This document shows, piece by piece, positions 10,800 to 28,236 of a stretch of DNA of 31,594 nt (position 1 is its first letter; each line of letters opens with the position of its first letter). A model generated the notes under the pieces. The model did not search any database and was not told the DNA's origin. It saw nothing but the letters and a program-made list of their open reading frames with translations. Position numbers and translations under genes: made by a program. The stretch comes from a virus, in the IMG/VR virus record IMGVR_UViG_3300005529_000077, positions 1-31,594 of that record; one strand, given 5' to 3'.

Positions 10800-12263
10800 A
10801 TGCCAGCCACGTCACAGGCTCAGCAGCGCGCGATGTACGCCGCCGCTGAGGGCAAGTCGCGCCTCGGCATCCCCAAGAAGGTCGGGGAGGAGTTCGTCGC
10901 CAAGGACGCCACCAACGGCCACGCCGCCGGCATCCTGTTCGTGGACCCCAGCGGCCATGTGCTGCTGCTCCTGCGCTCTTCCGCGGAAAAGAACTTCGCC
11001 AACCACTGGGCGCTGCCCGGCGGCAAGGGCGAGGACGGCGAGAGCCCGCTGCAGACCGCGGAGCGCGAGGCCAAGGAAGAAATGGGCGAGGTGCCGCCCG
11101 GCGCCGCCAAGCTGCTGGACAGTGTCGTCACGCCCACCGGCATGGCGTTCCACACCTTCGCGCGGCCGACGGAGAAGCAGTTCGCCCCGAAGCTCAACGA
11201 CGAGCACTGCGGCTATGCCTGGTGCCCGCTGGACCGCCTTCCGGCGCCGCTGCATCCGGCCGTCCAGATGACGCTGGAGGGGCGCCTCGGCATGGCCGCC
11301 GACATGGACCACGAGGAGTGGGAGGCCCTGCGCAGCGGCTTCGCCAAGTGGACCCGCGAGGAAGAGGCGGAGTCCGAACACGCCGAAGACGACGAGCACG
11401 GCAAGCTGAATGAGAAGGAACGCGCCGAGGCCGACCGCAGCGCCAAGGAGCGCGCGGACATGCCGGCATCCGCCTTCCTGGTGCCGGCGACCCGGAAATA
11501 TCCGATCAAAGAGATGAAGGACGGCGCCTGGGTCTACAGCCGCAACCTGCTGCTCGCCGCGGCGCGCGAAGCCAGGATGCACGGCCACGAGGACCTGGCC
11601 GCGCACGCCGACTCGATCCGGGAGCGCAAGTTCGGCGGCGCACAGGACAGCGCGTTGATCGCCTTCGACCGCGAGTCGCTGCGCAGCAAGGACGCCGACG
11701 GACGGCTCCACGTCAAGCTGGCCAACATCAGCAAGGCCACGGTGAATCCCTACCGCGGCGACGAGATCCCGGAGTGGCAGGCGCTGGGGCTCGACCCCGG
11801 CCGGGTCTACTACCTGCTGCGCGAGCCCGAGGAGCTCGCCAAGGCCGCGCCGACGTTCAACAACCTGCCGATCCTTTCGAAGCACCAGAAGGTTTCCGCA
11901 GATGATCACCAGCCCGACCTGGTGGTGGGAACCACCGGCAGTTCCTCCGAGTTCGTCGCTCCCTACCTGCAGAACAGCCTGGCCTTCTGGGCGGGCCCGG
12001 CAATCGACGCGATCGAGGCCGACGACGACAGCAAGCGCGTCAAGGAACTGTCCTGCGGCTACCGCTACCGCGCCGACATGACCCCCGGCACCTACCAGGG
12101 CCAATCCTACGACGGCGTCATGCGCGACATCGTCGGCAACCACGTCGCGCTGGTGCGCGAGGGCCGCGCCGGCCCGGATGTCGTTGTCGCCGACGAGGCC
12201 ATGAGGCCCGGCTGGCGCTTCGCGGCGTTCCGCAGCCGCTACGACTTCAGCCGCTTCAGCTGA
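10800..12263 (+). CDS. Nudix hydrolase fused to DUF2213 prohead-protease-like protein
   Basis: Protein of 487 aa with several parts. Residues 1-33 ([24 protein letters not shown]) form a short motif known from small phage proteins. Residues about 40-165 are a Nudix domain with a Nudix box at 75-96 (G75, E81, R89, E90, E93, E94, G96 all in place), so nucleotide-diphosphate hydrolysis is likely. Residues about 195-225 are highly charged. A DUF6582-like segment follows ([20 protein letters not shown]). Residues about 285-465 are DUF2213 ([54 protein letters not shown]), a family placed at the prohead protease position. Start: ATG 4 bp after the previous stop. Confidence 0.88.
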
Positions 12264-17521: not shown

Positions 17522-18175
17522 GTGGGCAACCCGAACACCAGCGCCACCGGCGGACCGCTGGCGGCGAAGCCACAGTTCGTCCTGGGGCCGCCCAGCGGCG
17601 GCACGGCCGGGCTCGGCTGCGGCGTCCTCGGCGGCAGCAACATCGAGGACGGGGCCCAGATCGGCGGCCTCATGGGTTTCTTCCAGGCCCTGATCGTGTC
17701 CCTTACCGGCCTGCCCGGGAACTACGTGCGGCCGCGGTGGCAACAGAACGCCCCGGTCCAGCCGGACATTTCAACGAACTGGTGCGCCTTCGGGCAGGTG
17801 CGGAGCTCGGCGGATTTCAATGCCAACGAGGCGCACATCAACAAAATGAATGTCACCTTGCGCAACGAGGTGATCGAGCTGCAATGCAGCTTCTACGGCC
17901 CCCAGGCTGACAACTACGCACGGGATCTCCGCGACGGCCTGCAGGTCGCGCAGAACCGGGAAGTCCTCACCCTCAATGGCATGGGCCTCGTCGACACCGG
18001 AGATCTCACGCCGGTGCCAGAAGAGACCAAGGGCCGTTGGTATTACCGGATCGACCTGCCGCTGCGCATCCGCCGGGTGCTGCTGCGGGAATACCCGGTG
18101 CTCGACATCGAGTCGGCCTCGATCCAGCTGCAAACCGACGCCGGCATCAACGAAACCATCAACGTCCAGGAGTAA
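17522..18175 (+). CDS. Neck terminator protein, LIC_12616 / gp12-like
   Basis: Protein of 217 aa with a GTG start directly after the previous TAG. The core LMGFFQALIVSLTGLPGNYVRPRWQ near 51-75 with following VQPDISTNWCAFGQV, then IELQCSFYGPQADNYARDLRDGLQVAQNRE and YRIDLPLRIRR, is typical of the LIC_12616/phage neck terminator family. It caps the tail tube and joins it to the neck. The order neck terminator, sheath, tube is standard for this kind of myovirus. Confidence 0.87.
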   Translation: MGNPNTSATGGPLAAKPQFVLGPPSGGTAGLGCGVLGGSNIEDGAQIGGLMGFFQALIVSLTGLPGNYVRPRWQQNAPVQPDISTNWCAFGQVRSSADFNANEAHINKMNVTLRNEVIELQCSFYGPQADNYARDLRDGLQVAQNREVLTLNGMGLVDTGDLTPVPEETKGRWYYRIDLPLRIRRVLLREYPVLDIESASIQLQTDAGINETINVQE

Positions 18176-18178
18176 TCC

Positions 18179-19669
18179 ATGGGAACCCCCCTCCCCGTTT
18201 CCCTGCTGGTGAGCGTATCGGTCACGCTGACGCCCCAGCCGGCGCAGGCGCAGTCGGTCAATACCGCGCTGTTCCTGGGCTCGTCCACGGTCATCGACAC
18301 CGTTCAGCGCCTCCGCAGCTATGCCACGCTCGCGGCCGTCGGCCAGGACTTCGCCAGCAACACGCCGGAGTACCTGGCGGCAGCGCTGTGGTTCGGCCAG
18401 TCGCCGCAGCCGCAGAGCTTGTATATCGGGCGTTGGGTGCAGTCGGCGTCCCACGGCCAGCTGATCTGCGGCGCCCTCGGCAACAGCACCCTGGCGGCCC
18501 TGGAAGCGGTCACCAGCGGCGGCTTCACCGTCACCGTCGACGGCGGCTCCGCGCAGCACCTATCGGGCCTGAACTTCAGCGGCATCACCAACTTCAATGG
18601 CGCGGCCGCCATCATCAGCGCGGCCCTCACCGGCGCGACCTGCGCCTACAGCGCAACGCAGAACCAGTTCGTCATCACCTCGAGCACGACCGGCACCAGC
18701 TCGACGGTGAGCTTCCTGAGCGCCCCGCTCTCCGGCACCGACATCAGCGCCCTGATCAACGGCACCAACGCCAGTGGCAATGGCGCCTACCAGGCCCCCG
18801 GCCTGGCTGCGGAGACGGCGCTGGCGGCGGTGGAGCTGTTCGATACCGAATTCGGCAGCAAGTGGTACGGGCTGGTCGTGCTCGGCGCCGCCGACAGCGA
18901 CCATGAGGCCATCGCCGCCTATATCGAGGGCGACAGCTCGCCGATCCACATCTATGGCGCCACCTCGTCGGAGGCCGGCATCCTGTCGGGCACTAGTACG
19001 ACCGATATTGCATTCATCCTCAACTCGCTCGGCTACGAGCGCACGCTGCTCCAGTATTCCAGCAGCAATCCCTACGCGGTGTGCTCCCTGCTGGGGCGCG
19101 CGTTGACCGTCGACTACACGGCGAGCAATTCGGCGATTGATCTGATGTTCAAATCCGAGCCAGGGATCGTCTCCGAGAATATCTCGGACTCCCAGCTGCA
19201 GGCTTTGCTGGCCAAATCGTGCAATGCATTTTTGGCCTACCAGAGCGGAACGATCACTTCGATCATCCAGCCCGGCAACATGATCGGCGGCATCCCGATC
19301 GACGAGCGCACCGGCGTGGATTGGCTGGCGCTGGGCCTGCAGATCGACGTGTTCAATGCCCTATACACAACCCCGACAAAGGTTCCACAAACCGACAGCG
19401 GCAACCACATCCTCACGACGGTAATGGAAGCCAGGTGCCAGCAGTCCGTGAACAACGGCACCCTGGCGCCGGGTGTGTGGAATGCCGGGGGCTTCGGCGC
19501 GCTGCAGCAAGGGCAATGGCTGTCCGCGGGCTACTACGTCTACGCGCCGCCCATCGCCACCCAGAACCAGGCCGACCGCGCCGCCCGCAAGTCGGTTCCC
19601 TTCCAGATCGCCGCCAAGCTGGCCGGCTCCGTCCGCAACGTCAGCATCGGCCTCATCGTTAACCAGTAG
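18179..19669 (+). CDS. Tail sheath-like protein, DUF3383
   Basis: Protein of 496 aa with an AGGAG site before the ATG. A DUF3383 N-terminus (LVSVSVTLTPQPAQAQSVNTALFLGSS) is followed by FGQSPQPQSLYIGRW, an inserted beta domain near 115-190 (GGFTVTVDGG, FVITSSTTGTSSTVSF), then ETALAAVELFDTEFGSKWYGLVV and a C-terminal part with GTITSIIQPGNMIGGIPIDERTGVDWLALGLQIDVFNALYT. These are the contractile sheath proteins of many proteobacterial myoviruses, and they show that the tail contracts. Confidence 0.93.
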   Translation: MGTPLPVSLLVSVSVTLTPQPAQAQSVNTALFLGSSTVIDTVQRLRSYATLAAVGQDFASNTPEYLAAALWFGQSPQPQSLYIGRWVQSASHGQLICGALGNSTLAALEAVTSGGFTVTVDGGSAQHLSGLNFSGITNFNGAAAIISAALTGATCAYSATQNQFVITSSTTGTSSTVSFLSAPLSGTDISALINGTNASGNGAYQAPGLAAETALAAVELFDTEFGSKWYGLVVLGAADSDHEAIAAYIEGDSSPIHIYGATSSEAGILSGTSTTDIAFILNSLGYERTLLQYSSSNPYAVCSLLGRALTVDYTASNSAIDLMFKSEPGIVSENISDSQLQALLAKSCNAFLAYQSGTITSIIQPGNMIGGIPIDERTGVDWLALGLQIDVFNALYTTPTKVPQTDSGNHILTTVMEARCQQSVNNGTLAPGVWNAGGFGALQQGQWLSAGYYVYAPPIATQNQADRAARKSVPFQIAAKLAGSVRNVSIGLIVNQ

Positions 19670-25355: not shown

Positions 25356-25664
25356 TTATGGTTTGCGCCGCCGTTTCGGCGGCTCCGGTGATTCGCTATC
25401 GTCGGAGGGCTGCCACCTGACGGCTTTGGCATTTTCGATAGCCTTAATTAATCCCTCCAAGGCCTGAGCAATCAGCTTCTTCTCGGGTGTGTCGGCTTCG
25501 GCCTCAACGGCATCGAGGATGGGAAAGCTGTTCTCAAGGCGTTGAATAATTTCAGCATGCAGGCTGCGCCCGGCCTTCTTGGCTGCCGTTTCAAGGCGAG
25601 TCCGCAGATCGGACTGCATCCGCAAACCGTATGGTGGGATGTGGGAAACCGGCTTTTCGCTCAT
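25356..25664 (-). CDS. Arc-like ribbon-helix-helix repressor
   Basis: Reads leftward, 102 aa from an ATG at 25664 (MSEKPVSHIPPYGLRMQSDLR). The frame is open further, but PPYGLRM is the usual start of Arc-family RHH proteins. Core: PPYGLRMQSDLRTRLETAAK (strand and first helix), then KAGRSLHAEIIQRLE (turn and second helix). A C-terminal helix (KKLIAQALEGLIKAIENA) and a basic PPKRRRKP tail follow. It is first in the leftward set, with 13 bp to the secreted-protein gene, and faces a rightward RHH gene across an operator-like region. It probably represses its own promoter and perhaps the divergent one. Confidence 0.88.
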   Translation of the reverse strand: MSEKPVSHIPPYGLRMQSDLRTRLETAAKKAGRSLHAEIIQRLENSFPILDAVEAEADTPEKKLIAQALEGLIKAIENAKAVRWQPSDDSESPEPPKRRRKP

Positions 25665-25690
25665 AAGGCCAAGTATCAGATAACTGCATG

Positions 25691-25751
25691 TTGACTTCAT
25701 GGCCTCACATTGGCATGATGTCAATGTGTAGTTATTTCTAATGACATAGTG
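25691..25751. promoter_or_regulatory. Divergent operator/promoter region
   Basis: The 106-bp gap between two RHH genes holds overlapping dyads. The best is at 25706-25728: CACATTG / CAATGTG arms with inner CAT / ATG, 10 of 11 pairs matching. TTGACTTCATG (25691-25701) is also mirrored by CATGATGTCAA (25714-25724), and a third related copy ATGACATAGTG lies at 25741-25751. A rightward promoter candidate is TTGACT (25691-25696), 17 bp, CATGAT (25714-25719); leftward, TTGACA (25724-25719) is a perfect -35 with a weak -10. The dyads cover these elements. Confidence 0.7.
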
Positions 25752-25770
25752 ATAGTAAGGAGGTTGCAAG

Positions 25771-25941
25771 ATGGAATCCGATAAGGCGGAGGAGCGGACC
25801 GCCGTATTGAATGTCCGCACCAGCGAAGCAGTGCGCCAGGCCGCAAAGAAGGCGGCCGCGGAGCAGGAGCGGTCGGTCAATTGGGTACTGGACAAGGCCC
25901 TGCGCGCTGCCTTCGGCCTGGAAAAGCAGGTGGAGGCTTGA
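25771..25941 (+). CDS. Small ribbon-helix-helix protein (56 aa)
   Basis: ATG at 25771 has a perfect AAGGAGG ribosome site (25757-25763, 7-nt spacing), the strongest in the region. The protein ERTAVLNVRTSEAVRQAAKK (strand and helix), then AEQERSVNWVLDKALRAAFG (turn and helix) is an RHH fold like Arc/CopG antitoxins or repressors. It faces the Arc-like gene across the dyads at 25691-25751 and heads the rightward arm of the cassette. No toxin gene of a known type is adjacent, so regulator is the better guess. Confidence 0.85.
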   Translation: MESDKAEERTAVLNVRTSEAVRQAAKKAAAEQERSVNWVLDKALRAAFGLEKQVEA

Positions 25942-26021: not shown

Positions 26022-26225
26022 GTGAAATCTAGCAAAAAGCAGGCTGAAAAGCCAGTCGTTCCCGAGGCAGCCATCATCATGGACATCGTTGTTTACGATG
26101 GTGATCTGGTGCATTTCATTCCCTTCGAGCATGCGCTGAAGGCGCAGACGAAGCAGCCGCCGAAGGTGCGCAACGCGGTGGATTTCCAGGCCTATCTGGG
26201 CGCCTTGAAGCTGGGACTAGCATGA
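26022..26225 (+). CDS. Small unknown protein (67 aa)
   Basis: GTG start at 26022 with GGAGG at 26008-26012 (9-nt spacing) and an ATGA overlap with the next gene. The N-terminus is Lys/Glu-rich (KSSKKQAEKPVVPEA), followed by AIIMDIVVYDGDLVHFIPFEHALK and a C-terminal helix AVDFQAYLGALKLGLA. No family recognised. It is joined to the RAMP-like gene by translational coupling, so the two proteins probably work together. Confidence 0.7.
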   Translation: MKSSKKQAEKPVVPEAAIIMDIVVYDGDLVHFIPFEHALKAQTKQPPKVRNAVDFQAYLGALKLGLA

Positions 26226-26851
26226 GCGCCGGCAAGACCGTCAGCATCCCGGCGCCGAACATGCAGGTTGCGGCCTTCCGCATCCGCGGTGTCAGCCCCT
26301 ACGTGGCCTGCAAGTTCTCGGAGAAGGCAAAGAACCAGATCCGCGAGACCCAGGCCGCGGGCAGCACCGCCAAGAGCAAGCGCAAGCGGGAACCCAAGGA
26401 CTTCAGCCAGCTGTTCGAGCAGGCCATCCATCGGAGCCGCGATGGCTGGGCCGGGATGCCGGCCTCCTGCTTCCGCAACGCCGCGATCTCGGCCTGCCGC
26501 ATCGTCAACTTCAAAATGACGCTGGGGCGCCTGGGTCTGTTCGTGGAGCCCGACGGCTTCGACCGTGACAGCGGAGAGCCGCTGGTCCGCATCGAGGGCG
26601 AGCCGCGGCAGCACGAGAGCATGGTCCGGCTCGCCACCGGCGTCGCCGATCTGCGGGTTCGCGCGATGTGGGAGCAGTGGAGCGCCGATGTCCGCATCCG
26701 CTTCGATGCCGACATGTTCACCCTTCAGGATGTGGCGAACCTGCTATCCCGAGTCGGCGCCCAAGTGGGAGTCGGCGAAGGGCGCCCGGACTCGAAGAAC
26801 AGCGCCGGCATGGGCTGGGGCCTGTTCGAGTTGGAGGGGGCTCCGCAATGA
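26222..26851 (+). CDS. Conserved phage protein with RAMP-like glycine loop
   Basis: Protein of 209 aa. I recall this type as a common hypothetical protein of proteobacterial phages, with the blocks MPASCFRNAAISACRIVNFK, then ATGVADLRVRAMWEQWSADV and VRIRFDADMFTLQDVANLLS. The C-terminus (183-202) is GVGEGRPDSKNSAGMGWGLF, a Gly-rich loop after a strand-helix unit. That arrangement resembles the loop of RAMP-fold proteins (Cas5/Cas6/Cas7 type), which bind RNA. A basic segment at about 52-62 (KSKRKREPK) could bind nucleic acid. The RAMP link is inference from motif layout. It overlaps both neighbours (ATGA). Confidence 0.82.
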   Translation: MSAGKTVSIPAPNMQVAAFRIRGVSPYVACKFSEKAKNQIRETQAAGSTAKSKRKREPKDFSQLFEQAIHRSRDGWAGMPASCFRNAAISACRIVNFKMTLGRLGLFVEPDGFDRDSGEPLVRIEGEPRQHESMVRLATGVADLRVRAMWEQWSADVRIRFDADMFTLQDVANLLSRVGAQVGVGEGRPDSKNSAGMGWGLFELEGAPQ

Positions 26852-27297
26852 AGACCAGCGACGAGGCAGTGCGCGCGGAACTGGAGCGGCTGACCCGCGA
26901 CGGCATCCTGAAGCCGGAGGATGTCGTCAAGGCCGCGAAGAGCCCGAAGAACCCGCTGCACCCGCACTTCGAATGGGATGACGGCGCCGCAGCGGCAGAG
27001 TACCGCCTGGAGCAGGCCCGCAGGCTGATCCGCGTGTTCGTGGTGATGCCGGATGCGCAGCCCAACTCCAAGCCGGTGCGGGCCTTCGTGAGCCTGCACG
27101 CTGACCGCAAGACCGGCGGGGGTTACCGCACCCTGAAGTCGGTGCTGTCGGATCGGGAGCTATACCAGCAGATGGTCCACGATTCGATGGTCGAGCTGGC
27201 GCAGCTGCGGAAGAAATACGAGCGGATCACGGAACTGAAGCCGATCTGGAAGGCAGTGGAACAGGTCGAGCGGAAGGTGGAGAAGAAGGCGGCATAG
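26848..27297 (+). CDS. Conserved phage protein with FEWDD motif
   Basis: Protein of 149 aa from the ATG at 26848 (ATGA overlap); the frame upstream is shadow. I know this as a recurrent phage hypothetical protein: DGILKPEDVVKAAKSPKNPLHPHFEWDD (19-45), then AEYRLEQARRLIRVFVV, FVSLHADRKTGGGYRTLKSVL and a C-terminal coiled-coil-like helix with a Lys-rich end. The invariant-looking H-FEWDD followed by an Arg-rich helix suggests nucleic-acid or nucleotide interaction; no known catalytic site is identified. It pairs with the RAMP-like gene and is followed by the 5-nt-periodic array. Confidence 0.85.
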   Translation: MKTSDEAVRAELERLTRDGILKPEDVVKAAKSPKNPLHPHFEWDDGAAAAEYRLEQARRLIRVFVVMPDAQPNSKPVRAFVSLHADRKTGGGYRTLKSVLSDRELYQQMVHDSMVELAQLRKKYERITELKPIWKAVEQVERKVEKKAA

Positions 27298-27337
27298 CGG
27301 CAACCCGATGCACGGAAGCGATTGTTGAAGAGGGATT

Positions 27338-27490
27338 GGCACGGCAGGCACGGCTAGGCTGGGCGTGGAACGGCACGGCCAGGAGAGGCGCCGCAGGCTT
27401 GGCTAGGCGCGTCAGAGCGTGACATGACGCGGCGAGGCTTCGCAGGCAACGCAATGCATGGCCAGGCCGCGATTGGCCAGGCTGCGCAAC
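27338..27490 (+). repeat. GC-rich array with 5-nt periodicity
   Basis: The non-coding gap after the FEWDD gene holds degenerate pentamers of type GGCNN. GGC or a close variant (GGA, GAC, AGC, CGC, GTC) begins at 27338, 27343, 27347, 27352, 27357, 27362, 27367, 27372, 27377, 27382, 27387, 27392 and, after a 1-nt slip, at 27401 and every 5 nt to 27441. A 13-nt unit TGGCCAGGCYGCG is present twice, 15 nt apart (27459 and 27474). No protein-coding frame of the usual kind fits. The array ends in the terminator at 27499. Confidence 0.75.
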
Positions 27491-27498
27491 GCAGCAGA

Positions 27499-27528
27499 GG
27501 GCTCACTGGAAACAGTGGGCCCTTTTTT
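27499..27528 (+). terminator. Strong intrinsic terminator ending the cassette
   Basis: GGGCTCACTG (27499-27508) pairs with CAGTGGGCCC (27513-27522) over a GAAA tetraloop, with one G-U pair, followed by TTTTTT (27523-27528). It ends a rightward transcript coming from the array and cassette, just ahead of the spike gene. Confidence 0.92.
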
Positions 27529-27537
27529 ATTGGAGCA

Positions 27538-28236
27538 ATGCATTTGTCGAAACTTTTCGTCAGTGGCATCGAGCGCTCCGACATTTACCAGGAAGCGCTG
27601 AAGGCTGCTCTTGATGGGTTGCAGTCACGGATCTGGACTGCCATGCCCGCCATCATCCAAAGCGTGTCCCTTGGGCCGGACGGCCGGCAGACCGCCACGG
27701 TTCAGCCGGCAATTCAGGCCAAGGTGACACAGCCGGATGGGAAGATGGTCGATGTATCCCTGCCGCCTATCGCCGACGTGCTGCTCATTTTCCCCGGCGG
27801 CGGTGGTTTCACCCTGACGTTCCCCGTCGGCCCCGGAGACGAGGCGCTGGTGATCTTCGCTCGCAACTGCATCGACGGCTGGTTTGAGTCCGGCCAGGTG
27901 TCTCCGCAAGCGGAGCTGCGGATGCACAGCCTGTCGGATGGCTTCGCCCTGGTTGGGACGCGCTCGATCCCGCGCCTGCTTGGAAACATCAGCACCAGCA
28001 GCGTCCAGCTCCGCAGCGACGACGGGTCGACCTACGTGGAGCTGGCCGGTGGACAGATGGTCAATGTGGTAGCGCCCGGCGGCATCAACCTCAACGGCGT
28101 GCGGATCGACGGCAGCGGGAATACCGATTTCGGCTCCGGCACCGTGAAGCAGGGCGGCAAGCACATCGACAGCACCCACTTCCACGGCGGCGTCGCGTCC
28201 GGCGGCAGCAACACCAATCCGGTGACCGGCCCATGA
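27538..28236 (+). CDS. Baseplate spike protein (gp138/gpV-like, HxH tip)
   Basis: Protein of 232 aa from the ATG at 27538; GGAG is only 2 nt away, and a TTG at 27544 is better spaced, so the exact start is open. The longer frame upstream runs through the terminator and is not coding. The core MPAIIQSVSLGPDGRQTATVQPAIQ with VDVSLPPIADVLLIFPGGGGF is the N-terminal OB-fold of phage spikes; FTLTFPVGPGDEALVIFA and LSDGFALVGT follow. The C-terminal beta-helix ends in HIDSTHFHGG (209-218), giving the HxH iron-binding tip. The spike pierces the outer membrane. Confidence 0.93.
   Translation: MHLSKLFVSGIERSDIYQEALKAALDGLQSRIWTAMPAIIQSVSLGPDGRQTATVQPAIQAKVTQPDGKMVDVSLPPIADVLLIFPGGGGFTLTFPVGPGDEALVIFARNCIDGWFESGQVSPQAELRMHSLSDGFALVGTRSIPRLLGNISTSSVQLRSDDGSTYVELAGGQMVNVVAPGGINLNGVRIDGSGNTDFGSGTVKQGGKHIDSTHFHGGVASGGSNTNPVTGP

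What the first reader, a model, noticed from the sequence alone, without database searches (positions are those of the whole stretch)
27338..27490. Non-coding array with strict 5-nt periodicity of GGC
GGC or a one-base variant recurs every 5 nt for about 100 bp with only two 1-nt phase slips, and a 13-nt unit repeats at 15 nt (3 x 5). The array lies in a 240-bp gap with no gene, directly after the FEWDD gene and before a strong terminator. I recall similar GGC-rich stretches after this gene in other proteobacterial phages, which I could not check here. If so, the array is a conserved element and not low-complexity drift: a structured RNA, a protein-binding repeat or a recombination site.
Basis: partly seen in the sequence, partly recalled or inferred. 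Interest (0 to 1): 0.72.

Follow-up and report, generated by a model that had tools for sequence, protein, structure and literature searches.

The report
Phage-encoded guide-RNA array of VIPR system
The odd five-letter repeat is the guide-RNA array of a VIPR system, a recently described phage-borne relative of CRISPR, and two of its three guides spell out sites in the tail-sheath gene of other phages while the phage's own copy of that gene differs.

Summary
Lag-5 autocorrelation at 27335-27490 is 0.51 against 0.29 +/- 0.04 in shuffles (0 of 2000 reach it), the strongest such signal in the window.

It belongs to a two-gene cassette: a Cas7-like RAMP protein (26222-26851) and the FEWDD gene (26848-27297). 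A 5-nt array lies beside, or between, these genes in 95 of 96 cassette loci from proteobacterial, actinobacterial and cyanobacterial phages.

This is a VIPR system (Doudna-lab preprint PMC13142463, April 2026): a Vipr RAMP plus vrRNA of alternating GGY/NN, whose NN pairs read DNA with one skipped base. Decoding the window's guides by that rule gave exact 18/18 matches for two of three guides. Three distinct sites lie in DUF3383 tail-sheath genes of other phages, skip at the codon wobble base. The window's own sheath gene mismatches both guides (12/18, 13/18). No target was found for the third guide.

A new member of a known kind, with contiguous units joined at a GCAGGC junction and a FEWDD partner gene not found in SUSP1.

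The parts
26222..26851 (+). vipr: Cas7-like RAMP protein, 209 aa
   Evidence: Profile matches PDB 36pp 'SUSP1 Vipr protein' E=5e-10. AF2 model pLDDT 91.4. The 49 Foldseek hits with E<=0.001 are all Csm, Cmr or type VII CRISPR complexes. PHROG 4652, unknown function.
26848..27297 (+). FEWDD gene, candidate vipr-accessory protein (vap), 149 aa, mostly helical
   Evidence: PHROG 15946, unknown function. Found next to vipr in most loci. AF2 pLDDT 94.4. Only weak Foldseek hits, several to winged-helix DNA-binding proteins, best E=0.24. No homologue found in phage SUSP1.
27311..27346 (+). conserved leader of the array, ending GGCACGGCA
   Evidence: 27311-27347 is 36/37 identical to L014, whose guides differ.
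27347..27395 (+). vrRNA unit U1, NN = AC TA TG GT AC AC CA GA GC, then tetramer CGCA
   Evidence: HMM segmentation. Exact 18/18 match in two unrelated DUF3383 tail-sheath genes.
27396..27444 (+). vrRNA unit U2, NN = TT TA GC AG GT AT GC GA TT, then tetramer CGCA
   Evidence: Exact 18/18 antisense match in a third DUF3383 tail-sheath gene.
27445..27493 (+). vrRNA unit U3, NN = AA AA AT CA CG TT CA TG AA, then tetramer CGCA; scaffold more degenerate
   Evidence: No convincing target.
27496..27525 (+). intrinsic terminator closing the array, directly before the baseplate-type gene (ATG at 27538)
   Evidence: 13-bp stem, 4-nt loop, T run. Core identical in L014.
18179..19669 (+). the phage's own DUF3383 tail-sheath gene, homologue of the targeted genes
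   Evidence: PF11863 E=5e-119. At the homologous sites it matches U1 in 12/18 and U2 in 13/18 only.

Best explanation
The array is the vrRNA array of a VIPR (Viral Interference Programmable Repeat) system carried by this phage. Vipr (26222-26851) oligomerises on the RNA, one subunit per GGY-NN pentamer. The GGY triplets are held by the protein and the NN dinucleotides pair with DNA, leaving one target base unread between dinucleotides. Each 49-nt unit is one guide of nine dinucleotides. U1 and U2 direct the complex to the tail-sheath gene of competing contractile-tailed phages and most likely repress its transcription. The phage's own sheath gene differs at those bases and is spared. Shown here: the array, its units, the gene family, the conserved linkage, and the decoded matches. 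Taken from the preprint for other VIPRs: RNP formation, the 1-nt skip rule and repression. Inferred: one subunit per pentamer, that this array is transcribed, that each unit is a separate guide, that the FEWDD protein is a Vap, and that the sheath targeting is functional.
For: 1. Gene A is a RAMP: profile match to the solved SUSP1 Vipr; Foldseek hits to Cas7-type subunits. 2. The array's grammar fits YNNGG: over 5990 pentamers, position 1 is G in 89%, position 2 G in 86%, position 3 C/T in 83%, positions 4-5 near even (these were segmented by an HMM that favours GGC). An array adjoins the cassette in 95/96 loci, against 0/96 shuffled loci and 0/79 sheath loci not selected for the cassette. 3. 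The array in known VIPR phage SUSP1 shows the same GGY-NN pattern. 4. Decoded by the 1-nt skip rule, U1 and U2 match 18/18 in DUF3383 sheath genes: L099 and L100 for U1, L101 for U2, skip on the wobble base in all three. A U1 skip-2 control scan gave one hit, not in a sheath gene. In 77 sheath loci only skip 1 gives scores of 15/18 or more for U1 and U2. 5. The matches run from junction to junction and do not extend past them. 6. The closest relative, L014, has the same leader and terminator but different NN: scaffold 21/27 identical, NN 7/18.
Against: No transcript or RNP data for this phage. No target found for U3. The exact targets sit in environmental contigs whose hosts are unknown, so a shared host is not shown. 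Five cultivated phages with related sheath genes match U1 and U2 only partly, 11-14 of 18. A wider test of 344 guides against the loci held showed no excess of 2-mismatch hits over shuffles; that database is small and biased. No repeated 3' tail like that of SUSP1 vrRNAs was seen between units.
Confidence: 0.93

Rival explanations
1. TRAP-like regulation: a ring or filament protein from the cassette binds the 5-nt periodic transcript to control its own operon; NN are mere spacers.
For: TRAP sites are triplets spaced about 5 nt apart (own knowledge). The array lies before a terminator.
Against: Two units spell exact sites in the same gene family at the wobble phase. NN differ between near-identical systems while flanks stay fixed. 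Gene A has a Cas7 fold.
Confidence: 0.03
2. A DNA-level element: packaging, recombination or replication site, or binding array for the FEWDD protein.
For: The FEWDD model has weak resemblance to winged-helix DNA-binding proteins. The position relative to the genes varies.
Against: In the loci read the GGC strand is the strand of the genes. The RAMP gene is constant. Decoded targets exist.
Confidence: 0.02
3. Low-complexity drift or replication-slippage product without function.
For: GC-rich phage (66%); pentamer repeats can expand by slippage (own knowledge).
Against: Copies are not identical (NN near random), yet the scaffold persists across very distant phages in 95/96 loci. Six-nt steps are almost absent while 4-nt steps recur at 44, 49, 54 and 59 nt.
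Confidence: 0.01

Closest known systems
VIPR systems (preprint PMC13142463, doi 10.64898/2026.04.26.720920), including the type II SUSP1 system
   Same: Phage-borne RAMP (Vipr) gene, one accessory gene, intergenic GGY/NN repeat RNA with variable NN, targets by the 1-nt skip rule with the skip at codon wobble, targets in other phages.
   Different: FEWDD accessory gene not found in SUSP1. Units run on without tails and are joined by a 4-nt GGCA|GGC step. The guides found point to a structural gene (tail sheath), not to lysogeny regulators or a satellite. Type I-VII could not be assigned because the supplement was not readable here.
Class 1 CRISPR-Cas (type III Csm3/Cmr4, type VII Cas7)
   Same: Cas7-like RAMP fold; RNA-guided, filament-forming logic.
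   Different: No CRISPR repeat-spacer array found. Here the guide is non-contiguous with 5-nt units.
TRAP, trp RNA-binding attenuation protein (own knowledge)
   Same: Protein-bound triplets repeated about every 5 nt in RNA.
   Different: Unrelated fold; spacers carry no target information.

Membership tests
VIPR | RAMP homologue (Vipr) with RRM core, G-loop and thumb | tested here: met
   SUSP1 Vipr match E=5e-10; Foldseek Csm/Cas7; conserved glycine-rich GIGEGRPDSKNSAGMGWG. The thumb was not examined residue by residue.
VIPR | Minimal locus: vipr plus an accessory gene (vap) | tested here: met
   Two-gene cassette conserved across loci.
VIPR | Accessory gene is one of vap1-6 | tested here: inconclusive
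   FEWDD has no homologue found in SUSP1. Mostly helical model, only weak similarity to DNA-binding proteins.
VIPR | vrRNA with 9-16 repeats of alternating GGY/NN, NN hypervariable | tested here: met
   Nine pentamers plus a tetramer per unit; grammar over 5990 pentamers; L014 comparison.
VIPR | Constant 3' tail after each repeat tract (SUSP1 clade) | tested here: inconclusive
   No tail between units; one terminator after the whole array. The paper states that architectures differ by type, including overlapping vrRNAs.
VIPR | Targets follow the 1-nt skip rule, skip at wobble base | tested here: met
   U1 and U2: three 18/18 sheath sites, all wobble; other skips fail. U3: none found.
VIPR | Encoded mainly by viruses or proviruses | tested here: met
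   The window is a virus record; homologues are in phages.
VIPR | vrRNA expressed and bound by Vipr; represses target | not testable with these tools
   Needs RNA-seq, pull-down and reporter assays.
CRISPR-Cas | CRISPR repeat-spacer array | tested here: not met
   No such repeats among the tandem repeats of the window or in the gap.
CRISPR-Cas | cas1/cas2 or other cas genes nearby | not tested
   No dedicated search was made; neighbouring genes examined are tail and baseplate genes.

The most novel reading that the evidence does not exclude
A VIPR variant in which many guides are concatenated without tails, each unit (8-11 pentamers plus a tetramer) bounded by a fixed GCAGGC junction that may mark processing or assembly ends, used with a FEWDD partner to shut off tail-sheath synthesis of rival myophages while the carrier's own sheath has diverged at the guide sites.
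Probability: 0.35. Interest if true: 0.65.

Novelty: new member of a known kind. Interest (0 to 1): 0.55.

Why it matters
It independently supports the VIPR decoding rule, reported only in a 2026 preprint found here, in a system with a different accessory gene and array layout. It names a concrete natural target, the tail-sheath gene of other contractile-tailed phages, with a visible self/non-self difference at the guide sites. It also gives an annotation to two PHROG families of unknown function (4652 and 15946) and a rule (units bounded by GCAGGC) that lets guides be read from many such arrays.

Tried and rejected
Pfam, NCBIfam and PADLOC gave no usable family for the cassette genes (PADLOC was run on the RAMP only). 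Rfam gave nothing at gathering score; a 0.2 E-value SAM/SAH riboswitch match lies on the terminator hairpin and is chance. No hammerhead ribozymes in 15 cassette loci. The RNA fold z-score of -3.55 includes the terminator, so it is not evidence of array structure. Coding in the array was set aside: the only long + frame through it (27424-28236) is an upstream extension of the baseplate-type gene that starts at 27538. The genome-contig scan gave one MAG contig (L104), so the host could not be named; megablast to known phages gave only short matches, the best in a Stenotrophomonas-phage terminase. U1 hits L097/L098 and U3 hits L102/L103 look like chance: no wobble phase in a long gene. A guide of L014 matches the window at 17639-17664 in 16/18, but such 2-mismatch hits occur at shuffle rate. 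The first HMM pass missed the SUSP1 array because that array is GGT-rich and lies on the other strand of the fetched stretch; a GGY pattern finds it.

Full report
OBSERVATION. The 5-nt periodicity is real and unique in the window: lag-5 identity 0.51 versus 0.29 +/- 0.04 in shuffles, 0 of 2000, and the window-wide peak is at 27338. A simple HMM for G-G-C-N-N segments the array into nine pentamers plus a tetramer, three times over: 27347-27395, 27396-27444 and 27445-27493. The 1-nt slips recur exactly every 49 nt.

LINKAGE. Homologues of the FEWDD gene (26848-27297) were collected from IMG/VR and from INPHARED phages. All the IMG/VR loci inspected had a 5-nt array nearby. The gene upstream (26222-26851) is part of the same unit. 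A search with it gave 79 more loci, most with both genes on one strand. The array lies after FEWDD, between the genes, or before both. With a run of ten or more pentamers as the criterion, 95 of 96 loci carry one. None of the 96 shuffled loci and none of 79 tail-sheath loci do. Phages of Mycobacterium (Gorge), Gordonia (Ecliptus, UmaThurman) and a cyanophage are included.

WHAT THE GENES ARE. The upstream protein's profile matches the solved 'SUSP1 Vipr protein' (PDB 36pp, E=5e-10) and finds a match in the SUSP1 genome. Its AlphaFold model (pLDDT 91.4) is closest to Cas7-type RAMP subunits of Csm, Cmr and type VII CRISPR complexes, although TM-scores are modest at 0.34-0.49. The FEWDD protein is a mostly helical protein with only weak similarity to winged-helix DNA-binding proteins.

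KNOWN SYSTEM. The preprint PMC13142463 describes VIPR: Vipr plus vrRNAs of 9-16 YNNGG repeats. The NN dinucleotides specify double-stranded DNA targets with a one-base skip that usually falls on the codon wobble base, and the effect is repression of rival mobile elements. The core features tested here fit; two (the 3' tail and the identity of the accessory gene) are inconclusive, as set out in the membership table.

DECODING. Read by that rule, the guides are U1 AC-TA-TG-GT-AC-AC-CA-GA-GC, U2 TT-TA-GC-AG-GT-AT-GC-GA-TT and U3 AA-AA-AT-CA-CG-TT-CA-TG-AA. Exact scans of IMG/VR returned four contigs for U1, one for U2 and two for U3. Two of the U1 hits (L099, 71% GC; L100, 38% GC) and the U2 hit (L101) lie in long ORFs that are all DUF3383 tail-sheath genes, at the motifs TYWVTTQDA and NSAITLAYK, with the skipped base at codon position 3. 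The other U1 hits (L097/L098, one sequence) and the U3 hits are not at the wobble position of a long gene. If sheath genes made up as much as 0.5% of the collection (an assumption), three of six distinct sites by chance would have a probability of about 1e-6 to 1e-5 before the wobble phase is counted. A U1 control with a 2-nt skip gave one unrelated hit. In 77 sheath loci, scores of 15/18 or more for U1 and U2 arise only with skip 1, mostly at the homologous codons. L099, L100 and the L101 contig had been fetched by exact match or are the same record, so their 18/18 scores in that test are not independent. The matches stop at the unit junctions, which supports one guide per unit.

SELF VERSUS NON-SELF. 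The window has its own DUF3383 sheath gene (18179-19669). At the homologous sites it matches U1 in 12/18 and U2 in 13/18. The closest relative, L014 (Vipr 89% identical), keeps the leader (36/37) and the terminator but has different guides: 21/27 scaffold bases but only 7/18 NN bases agree in unit 1. This is the expected picture for a guide cassette that changes target.

ARCHITECTURE. Over 572 junctions the strongest constant element is GCAGGC, made by a 4-nt step, with unit lengths of 39, 44, 49, 54 and 59 nt commonest. Six-nt steps are nearly absent. SUSP1 vrRNAs, by contrast, are separate and followed by tails (and the preprint). The preprint mentions staggered, overlapping arrays for some types. 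Whether that is this layout could not be checked.

LIMITS. Nothing here shows transcription, RNP formation or repression by this phage's system. The host is unknown. U3 has no target. The VIPR type is unassigned.

Noticed in passing
L004:1746-2233: The array of this cassette uses GGA-NN rather than GGC-NN as its scaffold, with the same 4-nt steps at 49-69 nt spacing; a possible change of Vipr triplet specificity.
   Followed up: partly
L006:3505-5091: An array of about 1.6 kb (328 pentamers by HMM) with irregular unit boundaries, far longer than the others.
   Followed up: no
window 17639-17664: A guide of the nearest relative L014 matches here in 16/18 at wobble phase, in the gene just upstream of the sheath; could mean the two phages target each other's kind, but such hits occur at chance rate.
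   Followed up: partly
L093:3167-4417: In Mycobacterium phage Gorge the vipr homologue is split over two reading frames and annotated with the FEWDD homologue as one gene (gp54); related phages annotate them as two genes.
   Followed up: no
window 25356-25895: Minus-strand ORF upstream of the cassette whose sequence resembles Arc-type repressors by eye; NCBIfam gave no match.
   Followed up: partly
window 10800-12263: A single ORF matches both a NUDIX hydrolase domain and a DUF2213 head-protease domain.
   Followed up: no
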